Positions 1-14,998 of a stretch of DNA of 64,000 nucleotides are shown here, piece by piece (position 1 is the first letter of the stretch; every line of letters starts with the position of its first letter). The stretch is from contig NZ_QXNY01000002.1 of NCBI RefSeq assembly GCF_003572205.1, positions 620,001-684,000 on the forward strand, in the 5' to 3' direction. Source of the stretch: Algihabitans albus (GTDB taxonomy: Bacteria; Pseudomonadota; Alphaproteobacteria; Kiloniellales; DSM-21159). The position numbers were made by a program, and so were the translations under genes. Below the pieces are notes generated by a model that was not told the DNA's origin, searched no databases, and saw nothing but the letters and a program-made list of their open reading frames with translations.

Positions 1-640
1 TCTCGCGGGCCGGGTAGAGATCGTAGAGGTTCTTGCTGCCCTGGCTCGTCGGCCGGAAGCGGACCGGCTCCGGTACCGCCCAGCCCCCGCCGTCCCTGAG
101 CCGATGCCCCTGACGGTCGCGGCGGTGGCGGCGCGCGAGCAGCTCGCCGAGACTGCGCGCGCCCTCCGCCTCCAGCCGTTCGCGCAGCGCCTTCATGCCT
201 TGCTTGGTCGCGCTCTTCTCCGCATCGTCACCATCGGCGATGCGGTTGGACTTGAAGCCGCGCCGTTGATTGAGGTGAAAGACCGCCCGGCCGATCTCGT
301 GGAGCGTCAGCTTGCGGTCCAGCGCCTCCGCGCGCAGCCAGTAGGGGTCCAGCGTCTCCAGCGCCTTGCGCGCGGCTGTGTCGGCCGGCATCAGTCCGGC
401 CGCCGTCAGAACCTGCAGCAGCCGCTTCTGCCGGCGCAGAAAGCGGTCCCGCCGCCGCCGCGCCGACCGCGCATCGCGCCGCTCGGCCGCGAGGGAGGTT
501 TTCGACTGGGGATCGCGCCCCGCTTCCTCGTTCGGCGTCAGGATACGCACGCCGGCATCCAGAACACACCGAGGTTCCAACTTCAGCAGGCACCAGCCGA
601 TGGAATTGCTGCCGAGATCCAGGCCAAGCCGGTATTTCAT
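1..640 (-). CDS. cas9: Cas9 endonuclease, N-terminal part (cut by window edge)
   Basis: RNA-guided DNA endonuclease of a type II CRISPR-Cas system. Only the first 213 codons lie in the window and the frame stays open to base 1. Residues 3-16 read YRLGLDLGSNSIGW, the RuvC-I motif with the catalytic Asp at position 8. Residues 53-77 are an arginine-rich bridge helix (RRDARSARRRRDRFLRRQKR). Residues 114-133 (HEIGRAVFHLNQRRGFKSNR) match the start of the Cas9 REC lobe. The ATG at 640 is preceded by AGGGGG about 9 bases upstream. The early, compact REC region suggests subtype II-C, which is an inference. The HNH and remaining RuvC motifs, cas1, cas2 and the array must lie to the left. Confidence 0.93.
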   Translation of the reverse strand, partial: MKYRLGLDLGSNSIGWCLLKLEPRCVLDAGVRILTPNEEAGRDPQSKTSLAAERRDARSARRRRDRFLRRQKRLLQVLTAAGLMPADTAARKALETLDPYWLRAEALDRKLTLHEIGRAVFHLNQRRGFKSNRIADGDDAEKSATKQGMKALRERLEAEGARSLGELLARRHRRDRQGHRLRDGGGWAVPEPVRFRPTSQGSKNLYDLYPARE

Positions 641-768
641 CGTATTCAGCCCCCTATCGGGCAGGGCCGCCGTCGAAATGACCGTCACAGGTTTCACAAG
701 CTCGATTGAGCCTCGAAGGGGACAAATTCCAACGGTTGCACTGCACAAAAGTAAATCGACCCTTGGCA

Positions 769-789
769 GTGTAACGTGTATCGTGTAAG
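769..789. repeat. Three tandem 7-bp units upstream of cas9
   Basis: GTGTAAC, GTGTATC and GTGTAAG follow each other without spacing; on the minus strand they read CTTACAC GATACAC GTTACAC. They end about 130 bp upstream of the cas9 start and may be an operator. Function is not known. Confidence 0.55.
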
Positions 790-849
790 TTGTCTTCTAG
801 GGTGCCTTGCAAGCTAGCCGCTTAGAGATCGAGGGCCACCCGTTAACAA

Positions 850-863
850 GCACTCTAGAGTGC
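850..863. repeat. Perfect 14-bp palindrome GCACTCTAGAGTGC
   Basis: A self-complementary 14-mer directly beside the A6/T6 run at 864-869. It could be a protein-binding site or part of the terminator structure. Confidence 0.5.
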
Positions 864-911
864 AAAAAATTCTCCTTTACGGAGCGGAACGGCGGGTTGC
901 GGCCCGTCGTT
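864..911 (-). terminator. Terminator-like double hairpin with T6 (fhs or a small RNA)
   Basis: Read on the minus strand, a 9-bp stem AACGACGGG/CCCGCCGTT with loop CCGCAA (888-911, one G-T pair) is followed by CTCC-GTAAA-GGAG (872-884), two A and six T (864-869). It lies about 150-200 bases beyond the fhs stop, which is far for a simple 3' end. It may instead end a separate minus-strand RNA such as tracrRNA. Confidence 0.5.
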
Positions 912-1062
912 TTCCGTTTCTGACTTCAGGGTCAGCGGGGAACTGCCGCCTCCAGCGTCGGGCGGCCAAGGCACGGCGGTAAGGCAAGCGAGGCGCGCAG
1001 ACGCGCCGGCCCGAAGCGGATCGCGTGGTCCGGACTAGCGGCAGCCGGGTGCAATCGGGGCG

Positions 1063-9777: not shown

Positions 9778-10947
9778 ATGACCTTGATCACCGACCCTCA
9801 GGAAGCCGCCGCCTTCTGCGCCCGCCAGGCCGAGGCAGAGTTCATCACCGTCGATACGGAGTTCATTCGGGACACCACCTACTGGCCACGCCTCTGTCTG
9901 ATTCAGATTGCCGGGCCGGAGGAAGCCGCCGCGATCGACCCCCTGGCCGAAGGCATGGACCTGGAGCCGGTCTGGTCGCTGTTCGACAAGACCGATCTGT
10001 TGAAGGTCTTTCACGCCGCCCGGCAAGACCTCGAGATCTTCTTCCACGATAGCAGCCGCCTGCCCCACCCGGTGTTCGACACCCAGGTCGCGGCCATGGT
10101 CTGCGGCTTCGGCGATCAGGTCGGCTACGAGAAGCTGGCGAGCCGGCTGGCCGGCGCACGGATCGACAAGTCAGTGCGCTTCGCGGACTGGGCCCATCGC
10201 CCGCTCGGCCGCAAACAGCTCGACTACGCACTGGCCGACGTCACGCACCTGCGCGTGATCTATCAGAAGCTGCGCAAGAAGCTCGCCAACTCCGACCGCG
10301 AAAGCTGGCTGGAGGAAGAGATGGCGGTCCTGCTCAACCCCGCCACCTATCGCCTGGAGCCGTCCGAGGCCTGGCGGCGGCTGAAAAGCCGCTCACGCGA
10401 CCGGCGCTATCTCGCTCACCTGCGCAACCTGGCCGCTTGGCGAGAGCGCGAGGCGCAGCGCCGGAATGTACCGCGCAACCGCATCCTGCGCGACGAGCAG
10501 ATCTACGACGTGGCCGGGCTGGCCCCGCAGACGGCCGAGGATCTCGCCAGGGCCCGCGGCGTTTCGACCGACTACGCCCGCGGCAAGGTCGGACAAGCGA
10601 TTCTGGAAGCCGTCGCCGAGGGCCTGGCGATGGACGAGGCCGACCTGCCGAAAGCGCCGCCGCGCGAGCAGCAGGTGGAGGCCGGGCCTGTGGTCGACCT
10701 TCTCAAGGTGCTGCTGAAGCAGAAATGTGAGCAGCACGGCGTCGCTCAGCGCCTGCTCGCCAACGCCGCGGATCTCGAGGCGCTGGCCGCAGGCGATCCG
10801 GAAACGGAACGGAACCTGCTGCAAGGGTGGCGTGGAGAGATCTTCGGCAAGGCCGCCTCTGCGCTTCTGACCGGCCGGCTTTTGTTGACAGGAGATGGGA
10901 ACGGTGGCCTGCAATTAATTGATAAAAAAGAAAACAATGAGCCTTAA
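9778..10947 (+). CDS. rnd: Ribonuclease D
   Basis: 3'-5' exoribonuclease for tRNA and structured RNA 3' end trimming. The DEDDy residues are visible: Asp26 and Glu28 in TVDTEFI, Asp84 in AARQDLEIF, Tyr150 and Asp154 in QLDYALADVTHL. An HRDC domain follows at about residues 212-290. Length 389 fits. Divergent from aspS, a common neighbourhood in alphaproteobacteria. It converges on the hydrolase gene with only 21 bases between the stop codons. Confidence 0.97.
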   Translation: MTLITDPQEAAAFCARQAEAEFITVDTEFIRDTTYWPRLCLIQIAGPEEAAAIDPLAEGMDLEPVWSLFDKTDLLKVFHAARQDLEIFFHDSSRLPHPVFDTQVAAMVCGFGDQVGYEKLASRLAGARIDKSVRFADWAHRPLGRKQLDYALADVTHLRVIYQKLRKKLANSDRESWLEEEMAVLLNPATYRLEPSEAWRRLKSRSRDRRYLAHLRNLAAWREREAQRRNVPRNRILRDEQIYDVAGLAPQTAEDLARARGVSTDYARGKVGQAILEAVAEGLAMDEADLPKAPPREQQVEAGPVVDLLKVLLKQKCEQHGVAQRLLANAADLEALAAGDPETERNLLQGWRGEIFGKAASALLTGRLLLTGDGNGGLQLIDKKENNEP

Positions 10948-10968: not shown

Positions 10969-12534
10969 CTAACCGCCCAGAATCGGGAAGGTCACGGCAA
11001 TGGCCCAGGCAAAGGCGAGCGCGTTGGCCAGCCCCGCCACGAGAGGCTGTGCGGTGGCCCGGTAGGCCCAGCGGCTGAAGAGGCCATAGACGACGAAGAA
11101 AATCAGGATCAGCGGGATGATGATGATCAGGAAGAACAACCCCCGCAGATCCAGAGCGACGGCAGCCGCAAGCGAGAGGGCGAAGCAGAGCTTGCTGAGA
11201 GGATAAGCTCCCGGCCGGGCCCCCTCGCCGCGCGTCAGCCACTCATCGGCCATGAAGTAGGGCAACGTGCCGGCAATCATGACGGCGATCAGCGGCAAGC
11301 GCGCTTCCGTGGGCGCGAAGGAGAGCACGAAGCCGTCGAGCGCCAGTCCGATCGCGCCGAGGCCGTAGAGTGCGACCAGCCCGGCGGCAAAGGCCGTCAT
11401 CGCCCAAGGGGAGTCCGGCCGGGCGGCAGGACTCCGGCGCAGCCGGCCAGAGACCGCCAAACCCGCAGCCGTGAGGAGACCGTAGAGCGCGAAGTGTGCC
11501 GCCAGGTAATCTGCGACCAGGAGCGGCAGGAAGTCCGTCGGCAGCACGCGCAGCACCAGCGGTGTCAGGATCGCCGGGCCGAGCATCAGCAGCGCCAGCG
11601 GTTTCCAGCCCAGGTTGGCACCCAGCCTCTCGGGCGCGGCGCGCGGCAGAAGATGGGACAGGGGATAGGCGAGCAAAACGATGCCGGCAAAGAGAAGCGC
11701 CAACCAAGGCCCGCGCGTGTCCAGCGAACCGACCGCGCTGCGTCCGAAAACGCCGTTCAGCCATGCCACCGACTCCACCAAGCTCTCGCGGCTGTAGAGC
11801 ACACCGATATGTTCGACAGCGTCCGCGAAAACCAAACGCCGTGCCGTGCCGACGGCGGGGTCGCCGACCGTTTCCCCCTCCTTCGCGGCGTCGCGGTTCC
11901 CCAGCCGCAGGACCCGCAGGCCTTCTTGTTTGAGCCCAGGCTCCCAAGCGCCGACGATGACCAGAAGGTTCTTCGGCACCTCCGCCGTCACGGCCCTGGA
12001 AAAGAGCGAAACCGCAATGGTCGCAGAGACCTCTTGCTGATGGTCCGCAGCGTAGCGGACCACGACATCCGACGCCATGGAGTGCCCCAACAGGGCCAGC
12101 CTGCCGTCGACGCCGGGCAGATCGAGCGCGTAGTCAGCCACCGCCCTCATCTCGGTCAGGAGATTGCGCATGGCGCCGGTTTCGGAGGTGACGTCCCCGG
12201 TCAGGGGCGAGCCGTTACGGCCATGTCCGAGCAGGTCGTAGGTCACGGCCACATATCCGGCATTGGCGAGCGACACGGCGAACGGCGCCATGAGCTGCTG
12301 CGAACCGGCGAAGCCGTGAGCGATCAAGACAGCCGGTGCCGGCTCGCCGCCCGGCGCCTGGTAAACCGTGACCGGCGTCGTCCCCAGGTGCGTGCGAGTC
12401 ACCTCGAGCTCCGACCGGGCAGCCGACAGAGCCCAGACGCCCACGAAAATCCCAAGCAGGCCGAGACCGGCCAGAAAACAGAGGCGCAGACGCGTCATCG
12501 GCTCCTGCAAGGGCTGCCCGTACTTACCGTCCAT
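10969..12534 (-). CDS. Alpha/beta hydrolase with C-terminal multi-spanning membrane domain
   Basis: 521 residues. One N-terminal membrane segment (LCFLAGLGLLGIFVGVWAL) precedes an alpha/beta-hydrolase domain with oxyanion motif AHGFAGS and nucleophile elbow GHSMAS. The C-terminal half holds about seven hydrophobic segments, the last ones around GLFFLIIIIPLILIFFVVYG. The substrate is unknown; the arrangement suggests a membrane-bound esterase or peptidase-like enzyme. The start at 12534 has GCGAGG upstream; two earlier starts (12558, 12603) give a longer leader without a good site. It is divergent from the TauE gene by 101 bases. Confidence 0.8.
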   Translation of the reverse strand: MDGKYGQPLQEPMTRLRLCFLAGLGLLGIFVGVWALSAARSELEVTRTHLGTTPVTVYQAPGGEPAPAVLIAHGFAGSQQLMAPFAVSLANAGYVAVTYDLLGHGRNGSPLTGDVTSETGAMRNLLTEMRAVADYALDLPGVDGRLALLGHSMASDVVVRYAADHQQEVSATIAVSLFSRAVTAEVPKNLLVIVGAWEPGLKQEGLRVLRLGNRDAAKEGETVGDPAVGTARRLVFADAVEHIGVLYSRESLVESVAWLNGVFGRSAVGSLDTRGPWLALLFAGIVLLAYPLSHLLPRAAPERLGANLGWKPLALLMLGPAILTPLVLRVLPTDFLPLLVADYLAAHFALYGLLTAAGLAVSGRLRRSPAARPDSPWAMTAFAAGLVALYGLGAIGLALDGFVLSFAPTEARLPLIAVMIAGTLPYFMADEWLTRGEGARPGAYPLSKLCFALSLAAAVALDLRGLFFLIIIIPLILIFFVVYGLFSRWAYRATAQPLVAGLANALAFAWAIAVTFPILGG

Positions 12535-13376: not shown

Positions 13377-14998
13377 CCCACCACCCGGGTCCGGGTGGCG
13401 CCGAGCGCATTTCCGAGCGCCGTCAGACGACGTTCCAGCACCTGTCCCGACGGCACCTCCGCCTGGTCGGGCAGATAAAGCGTCAGCTGACCCTCCAGGA
13501 ACTCGAGCTGACTACGCTCGAGCATGGCGGCGGTTCCCGCGGAGACGGCATAGGCCAAGCGCAGCGCCTGGCCCAAGGCTTCGGCCCGCGCCTTCATCGG
13601 CGCATCGAGTAGCGCGATCAGCTTGGTTGTCTCGGCGTTCTGGCTCAGCCCGCCGTAGCGCATCGAGAGCGCATAGCTGAGGTAGACGCGCTCGTTATGC
13701 CGAACGTAGAGCTGCGGTGCGCGCAGAACGCGGTAGAGAGCCTGTTCGGCACGATAGTCGGGGTGCTCGCGCCAAGCGATATCGCTCAGGTGGCAGGCCG
13801 TTTCGCGCAGACGGCGCTGATCCCGAGGCTCGTTCGGAAAAATCGCGGACGTCCAGTTGGCGATCGGTTCGCCCAAGTCTCCGAAACGTCCTTCGCGCGA
13901 CGCCCAGGCGCGCGCCGCAGCCAACAAGGGATCCTGTCCACGGAGCGCCTCGCTCTGCCGCTCGTAGACCCAGCCCTCGCGCAGTCCGTTGGCGGAAAAG
14001 ACCACTTCGGCGGGTTTGGCGCGTCGCAGCAACTGCTCCAGCAGCAGCCCGGCATAGGGCAAGGTCTCCAAGCGCCGCCGCGGCACCCCGGGCAGCCGCG
14101 CCAAGGAGCGCTTCCCCATCCGCGCCACCAAGCCGGCCAGTTCCTCGGCCTCCTTGCGCGACATGCGGTAGCCCTGGATCATGTGCAGCGGGTAATCGTG
14201 CTGTTCCACATGAATGCGTGCCAGCGCCCGCCAGGCACCGCCGACGGGATAGAAGCTGCGCCCCTCGGCGTCCGCGATCCAAGGCTGGGCCTCCAGGTGG
14301 CGCGCAACGGTGGCAGCCGCCTGAGCCCGGTCGCCCTCTTCACCGCGCATCAGACGCAGGGGACCCAAGGGCAAGGTCACGAGCTGTCCCTGGGTGCCTC
14401 CGTCGAGCTGCGTAAGTTCCAGCGACCCGCCGCCGAGATCGCCGGTCAGGCCATCGGCATCGGGGATCGCAGAGACCACACCTTGGGCGGAAAGCCGGGC
14501 TTCCTCCTGGCCGTCCAGCACGCGAACGGGTCTGCCGCAGCGCTCTTCGACCTGAGTGACGAAGTCAGGACCGTTGCTGGCATCGCGCACAGCGGCCGTG
14601 GCCAGGAGATCCAGTTGCTGGACCTCCATGGCGCGCGCCAAACCGGCAAACCGGCCGAGGCTGGCCAAGGCCAGGTCGACCCCCTCCTCGTTCAGGCGCC
14701 CGGTTTCTTCCAGGCCACGGCCGAGGCCGCAGAGAATCTTCTCGTTGAACAGGGCGACCGGAGCCCTTTCGTCGGCATTGAAAACCACCAGGCGTATGGA
14801 GTTCGAGCCGATGTCGACGATGCCGATGCGCGGTTGGGCCTTGGTCATCGACTTGGTGCCCCCGCCACGCTGCCGCCGGCTGCGCAAATCCGCCCTGCGC
14901 CCGGCCGGCTCGTCCGGCTGTCGGGTCGTTCCGGTCTGGCGCTCCGCCGGCCGATCTGCCTGGCGATCTACCACGTCTCTACCGGCTTTTCGCGCCAC
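13373..14998 (-). CDS. ppx: Exopolyphosphatase / guanosine pentaphosphatase (Ppx/GppA)
   Basis: Removes terminal phosphate from inorganic polyphosphate, or hydrolyses pppGpp. The actin-like ATPase fold is seen in GIVDIGSNSIRLVVFNADE and in DLGGGSLELTQL. A C-terminal HD-like helical region follows. Up to 541 residues from a GTG at 14998, only 21 bases after the ppk stop, so the two are probably one operon. The first 50 residues are an Arg/Gln-rich low-complexity tail; the ATG at 14848 (MTKAQPRIGIVD) is an equally reasonable start. The stop overlaps the convergent TauE stop. Confidence 0.94.
   Translation of the reverse strand: MARKAGRDVVDRQADRPAERQTGTTRQPDEPAGRRADLRSRRQRGGGTKSMTKAQPRIGIVDIGSNSIRLVVFNADERAPVALFNEKILCGLGRGLEETGRLNEEGVDLALASLGRFAGLARAMEVQQLDLLATAAVRDASNGPDFVTQVEERCGRPVRVLDGQEEARLSAQGVVSAIPDADGLTGDLGGGSLELTQLDGGTQGQLVTLPLGPLRLMRGEEGDRAQAAATVARHLEAQPWIADAEGRSFYPVGGAWRALARIHVEQHDYPLHMIQGYRMSRKEAEELAGLVARMGKRSLARLPGVPRRRLETLPYAGLLLEQLLRRAKPAEVVFSANGLREGWVYERQSEALRGQDPLLAAARAWASREGRFGDLGEPIANWTSAIFPNEPRDQRRLRETACHLSDIAWREHPDYRAEQALYRVLRAPQLYVRHNERVYLSYALSMRYGGLSQNAETTKLIALLDAPMKARAEALGQALRLAYAVSAGTAAMLERSQLEFLEGQLTLYLPDQAEVPSGQVLERRLTALGNALGATRTRVVG

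What the first reader, a model, noticed from the sequence alone, without database searches (positions are those of the whole stretch)
1..640. Edge-truncated Cas9: a type II CRISPR-Cas locus starts here
The first 213 residues on the minus strand carry the RuvC-I Asp8 motif, the arginine-rich bridge helix and the HLNQRRGFKSNR segment. A type II system must continue left of the window. Cas9 orthologues from Rhodospirillales-like bacteria are sparsely characterised, so its PAM and guide RNA may be new.
Basis: partly seen in the sequence, partly recalled or inferred. Interest (0 to 1): 0.75.

Follow-up and report, generated by a model that had tools for sequence, protein, structure and literature searches.

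The report
Complete type II-C CRISPR-Cas9 locus
The gene cut off at the edge is a complete bacterial Cas9 of an ordinary, apparently intact CRISPR defence locus whose guide-RNA partner lies inside the window; some related loci carry what look like built-in guides aimed at Cas9's own promoter.

Summary
Window 1-640 (-) is the first 213 residues of an uninterrupted 1,093-residue Cas9 that continues left in the same contig, followed by cas1, cas2 and a 23-repeat array on the opposite strand. RuvC and HNH motifs are present, and the predicted fold matches Nme1Cas9. This is a standard type II-C locus. Its Cas9 subclade spans several orders, while same-genus genome G003 has only a 45% identical Cas9. 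Four targets were found: two Mu-like phage genes, one unidentified gene and one exact self-match. The PAM is only a weak guess, N3CAC. Off the window, some relatives carry a lone CRISPR repeat between cas9 and the tracrRNA whose preceding 10-13 bases recur upstream of the same cas9. Of 12 strong cases, 6 match at 11/12 or better, against 1 of 1,272 cross-locus controls. The window locus itself lacks this unit.

The parts
1..640 (-). 5' end of cas9 (first 213 residues; start codon 638-640). The rest is outside the window: cas9 ends at L002:13359 = G000:C2:617359; cas1 L002:12437-13336 (-); cas2 L002:12088-12432 (-); array of 23 identical 36-nt repeats and 22 spacers L002:10531-12014 (+).
641..814 (.). 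Intergenic region between cas9 and the tracrRNA, expected to hold both divergent promoters. By eye TTGGCA (763-768), 17 nt, TAAGTT (786-791) could be the tracrRNA promoter; the promoter scan did not report it. No solo CRISPR repeat (best 11/18 within 700 nt of the cas9 start) and no recurring 8-mer.
815..842 (+). tracrRNA anti-repeat: 27 of 28 bases complementary to the CRISPR repeat
   Evidence: duplex -60.1 kcal/mol against mean -22 and best -33 in 200 shuffles of the anti-repeat stretch
842..913 (+). tracrRNA body: GTTAACAAGC motif, nexus hairpin 850-863, second hairpin 872-884, GC-rich terminator-like hairpin 890-909 followed by TTTT. The 3' end is inferred; the terminator scan reported no site (its rule wants five T).

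Best explanation
It is a complete and probably working type II-C CRISPR-Cas adaptive immunity locus. Shown by sequence: cas9-cas1-cas2 in one direction, an array of 23 identical repeats converging on cas2, and a tracrRNA gene divergent from cas9 whose anti-repeat matches the repeat. Inferred from known type II-C biology: crRNAs are transcribed from promoters inside the repeats and pair with the tracrRNA; Cas9 loaded with the pair cuts invading DNA that matches the spacer and has the right PAM 3' of the protospacer; Cas1-Cas2 add new spacers at the cas2-side end of the array. At least two spacers fit Mu-like transposable phages.
For: Uninterrupted 1,093-aa Cas9 with RuvC_III, HNH_4 and Cas9_a domains and TIGR01865 over residues 3-1083. 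Catalytic positions D8, E549, H631, N654, H770, D773 present. AlphaFold model pLDDT 83.8, pTM 0.69; best PDB match Nme1Cas9 6je4 at E 7.3e-43. Type II Cas1 (TIGR03639, 1.6e-68) and Cas2; only one cas1 in the genome. 23 of 23 repeats identical, and no other copy in the genome at up to 3 mismatches. Anti-repeat upstream of cas9 in 13 of 13 loci examined (the window's and 12 order members with an array), and the GTTAACAAG motif beside it in 58 of 60 loci (of the two misses, L026 was then found by hand, L075 was not). Covariation 0.440 against shuffled mean 0.251, 0 of 500 shuffles as high (7 sequences; relatedness can inflate this, but sliding the partners drops it to 0.057-0.196). Spacers 3 and 8 match a Mu-type portal gene and a Mu transposase gene at 27/30.
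Against: No expression or cleavage data. Spacer 19 matches the genome's own 3-hydroxyacyl-CoA dehydrogenase gene 29/29, which a fully active system with a correct PAM should not tolerate. The first HNH metal ligand is Glu rather than the usual Asp. No exact viral target in 6 scans of viral contigs with core sequences of 7 of the 22 spacers, and none credible in the phage and plasmid collections. Unaided folding of the tracrRNA region is not unusual (z -1.09). Rfam at its gathering scores reports only a tRNA in L002.
Confidence: 0.95

Rival explanations
1. The locus is intact in sequence but silent or inhibited (by an anti-CRISPR or by lost expression), so the self-matching spacer 19 does no harm.
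For: A 29/29 match of spacer 19 in an intact housekeeping gene and a 27/30 match of spacer 3 in a resident Mu-like prophage gene.
Against: All 23 repeats identical, all three cas genes open. If the PAM is N3CAC the self target would be one base out of register and the prophage target would lack the PAM, so both would be tolerated by an active system. No anti-CRISPR gene was looked for.
Confidence: 0.15
2. Spacer 19 is a slipped acquisition (29 nt) that sits one base out of register with the PAM, and the true PAM is N3CAC(C/A).
For: 3' flanks: s1 AAGCACA, s8 CGCCACC, s19 after a one-base slip CTGCACC; three of four random flanks share some 3-mer in register with one slip in 2.8% of draws. The guess was noted; afterwards the solo-repeat guide of the nearest fully read relative, L039, was seen to have a match followed by GCGCACT: 10 of 12 bases, a level that control anchors with an N3CAC flank reach in 2 of 600.
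Against: Two to three protospacers, two of them only 27/30; post hoc; s3 (CGCGCCA) has no CAC, explained only by assuming escape. L039's match has a mismatch at the base next to the PAM, and L027's solo-repeat guide has no such target. In relatives of the subclade, L043 spacer 10 (29/30) has GAGGACA, and an L042 spacer (27/30, E 0.003) has CAGGCACT, with CAC one base off register. One window position without a repeat also reaches 10/12 with this flank.
Confidence: 0.3
3. The frame belongs to an IscB/TnpB-like transposon nuclease or a broken Cas9 fragment.
For: Only the RuvC-I and bridge-helix region is visible inside the window.
Against: Full-length Cas9 with alpha-helical lobe, HNH and RuvC-III, cas1, cas2 and an array.
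Confidence: 0.01

Closest known systems
Type II-C CRISPR-Cas with Nme1Cas9 (PDB 6je4, 6jdq)
   Same: Cas9 fold over the whole length; gene order cas9-cas1-cas2, repeats with promoter-like ends and a separate tracrRNA (for Neisseria recalled, not fetched)
   Different: about 22% identity over the structural alignment; different repeat and tracrRNA sequence; PAM not determined
EHCas9 (PMC10281378; abstract, section 21 and part 1 of section 22 read)
   Same: II-C locus with cas9-cas1-cas2, tracrRNA upstream of cas9, 36-bp repeats, 1,070 aa, nearest homologues in Alphaproteobacteria, anti-repeat plus two stem-loops in the designed sgRNA
   Different: its sequence could not be compared here; HNH D605/H606/N629 against E630/H631/N654 in the window; its PAM is NGG
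Cas9 loci of Hyphomicrobiaceae MAG UBA7697 (L039), G059 (L026) and a Deltaproteobacteria-labelled MAG (L041, partial)
   Same: 64-69% identity and the same subclade; repeats of L039 and L026 differ from the window's at 3 of 36 positions; similar tracrRNA core
   Different: L039 has a solo repeat between cas9 and tracrRNA, and L026 has about 1.45 kb there; the window has neither
tracr-L of type II-A (Workman 2021, seen only as summarised in passages of PMC8616872)
   Same: compared with the solo-repeat units of the relatives: an 11-nt match near the cas promoter, PAM-adjacent, without cleavage (the last inferred for the relatives)
   Different: tracr-L is a 5'-extended tracrRNA; here the guide precedes a separate CRISPR repeat, in II-C; absent from the window locus

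Membership tests
Type II CRISPR-Cas | Cas9 with RuvC (three motifs) and HNH | tested here: met
Type II CRISPR-Cas | cas1 and cas2 next to cas9, of the type II branch | tested here: met
   TIGR03639, Cas1_II, Cas2_II
Type II CRISPR-Cas | CRISPR array | tested here: met
   23 identical 36-nt repeats, 22 spacers of 29-30 nt
Type II CRISPR-Cas | tracrRNA complementary to the repeat | tested here: met
   sequence, duplex energy, covariation; expression not tested
Subtype II-C | no csn2 (II-A) | tested here: inconclusive
   No Csn2 match in the genome, but the control genomes did not ring either; only 73 bases lie between cas2 and the array
Subtype II-C | no cas4 (II-B) | tested here: met
   no Cas4 match in the genome; the control rings in 8 of 14 genomes
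Subtype II-C | array transcribed against the cas operon from promoters in the repeats | tested here: inconclusive
   Opposite strand is shown and repeats end in TACAAT, with a terminator-like hairpin after the array seen by eye; transcription cannot be tested here
Subtype II-C | DNA cleavage with a 3' PAM | not testable with these tools
   four protospacer flanks only
IscB/TnpB | short protein, no REC lobe, transposon context | tested here: not met
   1,093 aa with Cas9_a lobe and a cas operon

The most novel reading that the evidence does not exclude
Within the Cas9 family to which the window belongs, some type II-C loci encode a built-in self-guide: a solitary CRISPR repeat between cas9 and the tracrRNA whose preceding 10-13 nt match a second site, 24-221 nt upstream of cas9 and often beside a shared PAM-like flank, so that Cas9 with a too-short guide sits on its own promoter and represses it without cutting. 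This would be a type II-C counterpart of tracr-L (II-A) and scaRNA (II-B), built differently. The window locus lacks the unit; its nearest fully read relative, L039, has a full solo repeat with a weaker (10/12) match next to an N3CAC flank.
Probability: 0.5. Interest if true: 0.7.

Novelty: new member of a known kind. Interest (0 to 1): 0.4.

Why it matters
The locus is a whole, readable type II-C system from a little-studied alphaproteobacterial subclade, with repeat, tracrRNA and all cas genes in hand, so its PAM and activity can be tested directly. HNH with Glu instead of Asp is common in this family (28 of 92 Cas9s) and could be tested for its effect on cutting. The larger gain is off the window: if the solo-repeat guides of the relatives are real regulators, then short-guide self-repression of Cas9 arose in II-C as well, by another route than tracr-L.

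Tried and rejected
PAM from collections: the array against phages and plasmids gave no credible protospacer. Six exact scans of viral contigs gave 0 hits each. For own spacers (only 2 and up to 8 first-look candidates per genome were scored) I kept matches with E below 0.002 and 27/30 or better and dropped the rest as chance; that is nearly all of the matches in 145 of 385 genomes. Of 91 spacers of relatives against 385 genomes (E limit 0.005), 10 matches lie outside their own array; all 10 were looked at and two reach 27/30 (L043 spacer 29/30 in its own genome, L042 spacer 27/30). Of 53 spacers against 61 genomes, 10 matches lie outside the arrays; I looked at 7 and these reach 24-26 of 30. 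The first 911 of those 1,791 joined bases gave no phage match. One search (self-target stretch in 39 genomes) found no convincing second copy.

tracr-L or a solo repeat in the window locus: rejected. Best repeat-like stretch on the tracrRNA strand is 11/18 within 700 nt, and no 8-mer recurs from -30 to +230 of the cas9 start. Broken HNH because of Glu630: rejected, since 28 of 92 Cas9s (the window's included) have Glu there, with 15 changes on the tree.

Rows dropped: 2 of 91 Cas9s whose matched range contains a stop were left out of the alignment and 3 distant ones added (88 of the 92 rows are different). In one search, 33 loci had no usable array repeat; 26 of these were scanned with the pooled repeats and 7 were not (L072, L094, L098, L117, L223, L226, L227). 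The 107 loci hold at least 2 duplicate pairs, and some others look like one contig reached twice with shifted starts; no strong or weak solo-repeat locus was found to be such a duplicate.

Shmakov 2023 is not held. Seen: PMC12080349 abstract, introduction, part 1 of results; PMC10281378 abstract and two sections (one in part); passages only of PMC7606464, PMC9617884, PMC8616872; term look-ups without a hit in PMC3936727 and PMC11417352. The PAM NNNCAT of Parvibaculum Cas9 is recalled and could not be found in the library.

Full report
What is there. The window begins inside a Cas9 gene. The same contig continues to the left (window = G000:C2:620001-684000), and I read 20 kb across the edge as L002 (window position = L002 position minus 16000). 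The frame is open from the ATG at window 638-640 to L002:13359 and encodes 1,093 residues. NCBIfam TIGR01865 covers residues 3-1083 (E 3.3e-162), and Pfam finds Cas9_a, HNH_4 and RuvC_III. In an alignment of 92 Cas9s (the window's included; 88 different) D8 is kept in 89 (2 gaps, 1 Glu), H631 in 91, and E549, N654, H770 and D773 in 92. Residue 630, the first HNH metal ligand (role recalled from other Cas9s), is Glu here, and is Asp in 63, Glu in 28 and Asn in 1 of the 92. A structure model (pLDDT 83.8, pTM 0.69) matches Nme1Cas9 best in the PDB (E 7.3e-43, 22% identity).

The rest of the locus. cas1 (L002:12437-13336, type II Cas1 TIGR03639) and cas2 (12088-12432) follow cas9 on the same strand. 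Then comes an array of 23 identical 36-nt repeats with 22 spacers of 29-30 nt, read on the opposite strand, with a terminator-like hairpin and T-run after the last repeat (seen by eye). No other copy of the repeat occurs in the genome at up to 3 mismatches. There is a single cas1 in the genome and no cas4 match; csn2 is undecided because its control did not ring. This is the gene content of subtype II-C. In II-C the newest spacers join at the last repeat and each repeat holds a promoter (PMC12080349; abstract, introduction and part 1 of the results read).

The guide RNA inside the window. At window 815-842 (+) lies an anti-repeat, divergent from cas9. Repeat and anti-repeat pair at -60.1 kcal/mol; 200 shuffles average -22 and reach -33 at best. 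Downstream follow GTTAACAAGC, a nexus hairpin, a second hairpin and a terminator-like hairpin. All 13 loci examined (the window's and 12 order members with an array; L036 without one was left out) have an anti-repeat upstream of cas9. In one search, 58 of 60 loci have the GTTAACAAG motif beside it; of the two misses, L026 was found by hand and aligned, L075 was not. Among 7 close relatives, window included, 96.4% of cells pair, 7 of 16 pairs change on both sides, and the covariation score 0.440 is reached by 0 of 500 shuffles; sliding the partners by 1-3 columns gives 0.057-0.196. The structure was set by me from folds of these sequences, which favours it on cells paired. The unaided fold of the window's tracrRNA region is not unusual (z -1.09), and Rfam reports only a tRNA in L002.

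Kinship. Of 61 genomes of the order, own included, 14 have a Cas9 match at E <= 1e-20. In a quick tree of 92 Cas9s the window sits in a supported 12-row subclade with records labelled Hyphomicrobiaceae, Oceanicaulis, Parvibaculum, Rhodobacteraceae, Deltaproteobacteria, Kiloniellales and Rhodothalassium salexigens, and with order members G059, G025 and G027. The Cas9 of same-genus genome G003 is only 45% identical and falls far away, and same-genus G004 (82% complete) has no match. That patchiness suggests that the locus moves between lineages. The three most distant rows have long branches and their placement is unsure.

Targets and PAM. Own spacers were searched in 385 genomes of the class and 61 of the order. 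The matches kept are: spacer 19, 29/29 in the genome's own 3-hydroxyacyl-CoA dehydrogenase gene; spacer 3, 27/30 in a Mu-type portal gene of the same genome; spacer 8, 27/30 in a Mu transposase gene of G003; spacer 1, 27/30 in a G004 gene without a family match. Their 3' flanks are CCTGCACC, CGCGCCAG, CGCCACCT and AAGCACAG. Spacers 1 and 8 share CAC at positions 4-6, and spacer 19 does if slipped by one base. Three of four random flanks share a 3-mer in register, with one slip allowed, in 2.8% of draws, so N3CAC is a weak guess. Against it, two relatives of the subclade have protospacers with GAGGACA (29/30) and CAGGCACT (27/30). If the guess is right, the self target and the prophage target would both be unusable, which would explain their tolerance. 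Spacers 4 and 6 are identical at 28 of 30 positions, but no viral contig holds their shared 25-base core.

Off the window: self-guides in relatives. While locating anti-repeats I saw a solitary repeat between cas9 and the anti-repeat in some relatives. I then compared the 12 nt just before each solo repeat with the region from 30 nt inside cas9 to 700 nt upstream (shorter in 3 loci) in 107 loci: 81 with their own array repeat, 26 scanned with the pooled repeats. Twelve loci have a strong solo repeat (15/18 or better, counting L108 with an indel); in 11 of the 12 it lies between cas9 and the tracrRNA, not in L069. In 6 of 12 the 12 nt match a second site at 11/12 or 12/12 (L065, L074, L078, L085, L105, L207), in 3 at 10/12 (L039, L108, L208), and in 3 at 9/12 or less (L027, L069, L109). 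When each guide is held against other loci, 1 of 1,272 reaches 11/12 and 65 of 1,272 reach 10/12 or better; without the 2 duplicate pairs it is 1 and 63 of 1,248. Twelve weak places (13-14/18; one is a second place in L108) give 11/12 or better in 3 (L047, L102, L114), 10/12 in 4 (L060, L091, L110, L113) and less in 5; their cross-locus control is 4 of 1,248 at 11/12 or better and 74 of 1,248 at 10/12 or better. Beyond those 12 nt the match is at chance level (1-5 of 12 in the nine strong loci with 10/12 or better). The matched sites of the nine loci at 11/12 or better lie 81-221 nt upstream of the cas9 start, and those of the three strong loci at 10/12 lie at 24, 121 and 159.

Flanks of the matched sites. 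Many fit N-R-G-N-A/T-T/A (L065 GGGAATTT, L102 TGGAAATT, L114 AGGAATTG, L108 AGGCATTG, L078 GGGCATAC, L085 GGGGATTG, L047 GAGAATTT, L105 GAGATTGA, L091 GGGGATGT). L039, L060, L074, L110, L113, L207 and L208 do not. The rule was fitted to the first hits; with it imposed, 7 of 16 candidate places (L109 at two boundaries) reach 10/12 or better against 4 of 600 random anchors. Without a flank rule, 92 of 8,100 random anchors have an exact match of 10 or more, against 5 of 21 candidates. The simplest reading is a short-guide RNA that parks Cas9 on its own promoter, as tracr-L does in II-A with an 11-nt match (passage in PMC8616872, which says that tracr-L is not found in other subtypes). That these units are transcribed, or repress anything, is not shown.

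The window and its nearest relative. The window locus has no solo repeat (best 11/18) and no recurring 8-mer near cas9. In L039 the 10/12 match has mismatches at positions 1 and 11 from the flank and is followed by GCGCACTT; with an N3CAC flank required, control anchors reach 10/12 in 2 of 600. The N3CAC guess had been noted before that match was seen. L027 shows no such match. One window anchor without a repeat after it also reaches 10/12 with this flank, out of 188 anchors scanned with two flank rules; I take it as chance.

Verdict. The locus itself is an ordinary, complete II-C system. The guide RNA is now known, the PAM is not, and the most interesting outcome is the self-guide pattern in its relatives, which is statistically strong but functionally untested and not searched in print beyond.

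Noticed in passing
L065, L074, L078, L085, L105, L207 (strong); L047, L102, L114 (weaker repeat); L039, L108, L208 (10/12): region between cas9 and anti-repeat: Solitary CRISPR repeat whose preceding 10-13 nt recur upstream of the same cas9, in many cases next to an NRGNWW-like flank: candidate II-C self-guides that repress cas9.
   Followed up: partly
Cas9 residue 630 (L002) and the aligned column in 92 Cas9s: First HNH metal ligand is Glu in 28, Asp in 63 and Asn in 1 (L089) of 92, with 15 changes on the tree. L089 could be a natural HNH mutant.
   Followed up: partly
L002:11753-11781 and G000:C6:311264-311292: Self-matching spacer 19, 29/29, in a 3-hydroxyacyl-CoA dehydrogenase gene.
   Followed up: partly
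L002:10765-10794 and 10897-10926: Spacers 4 and 6 are identical at 28 of 30 positions (they differ at 26 and 27), as if taken from two related phages or diverged after duplication.
   Followed up: partly
L187 (G000:C4:52000-71900): Mu-like phage genes (portal; protein F with a PBECR2 nuclease-like domain) in the same genome, the portal gene matched 27/30 by spacer 3.
   Followed up: partly
L026:9459-10910: About 1.45 kb lies between cas9 and the tracrRNA in this close relative; in the other loci the best anti-repeat match lies 74-455 nt away.
   Followed up: no
L030:1489-1522 and 13445-13480: Single CRISPR-repeat copies about 0.7 kb and 10 kb from the array.
   Followed up: no
L058, L118: Relatives in which the translation of the matched Cas9 range contains one stop.
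   Followed up: no
G380:C84:14144-14173 (L171): Spacer 10 of the Parvibaculum-type relative L043 matches what is apparently its own genome 29/30.
   Followed up: no
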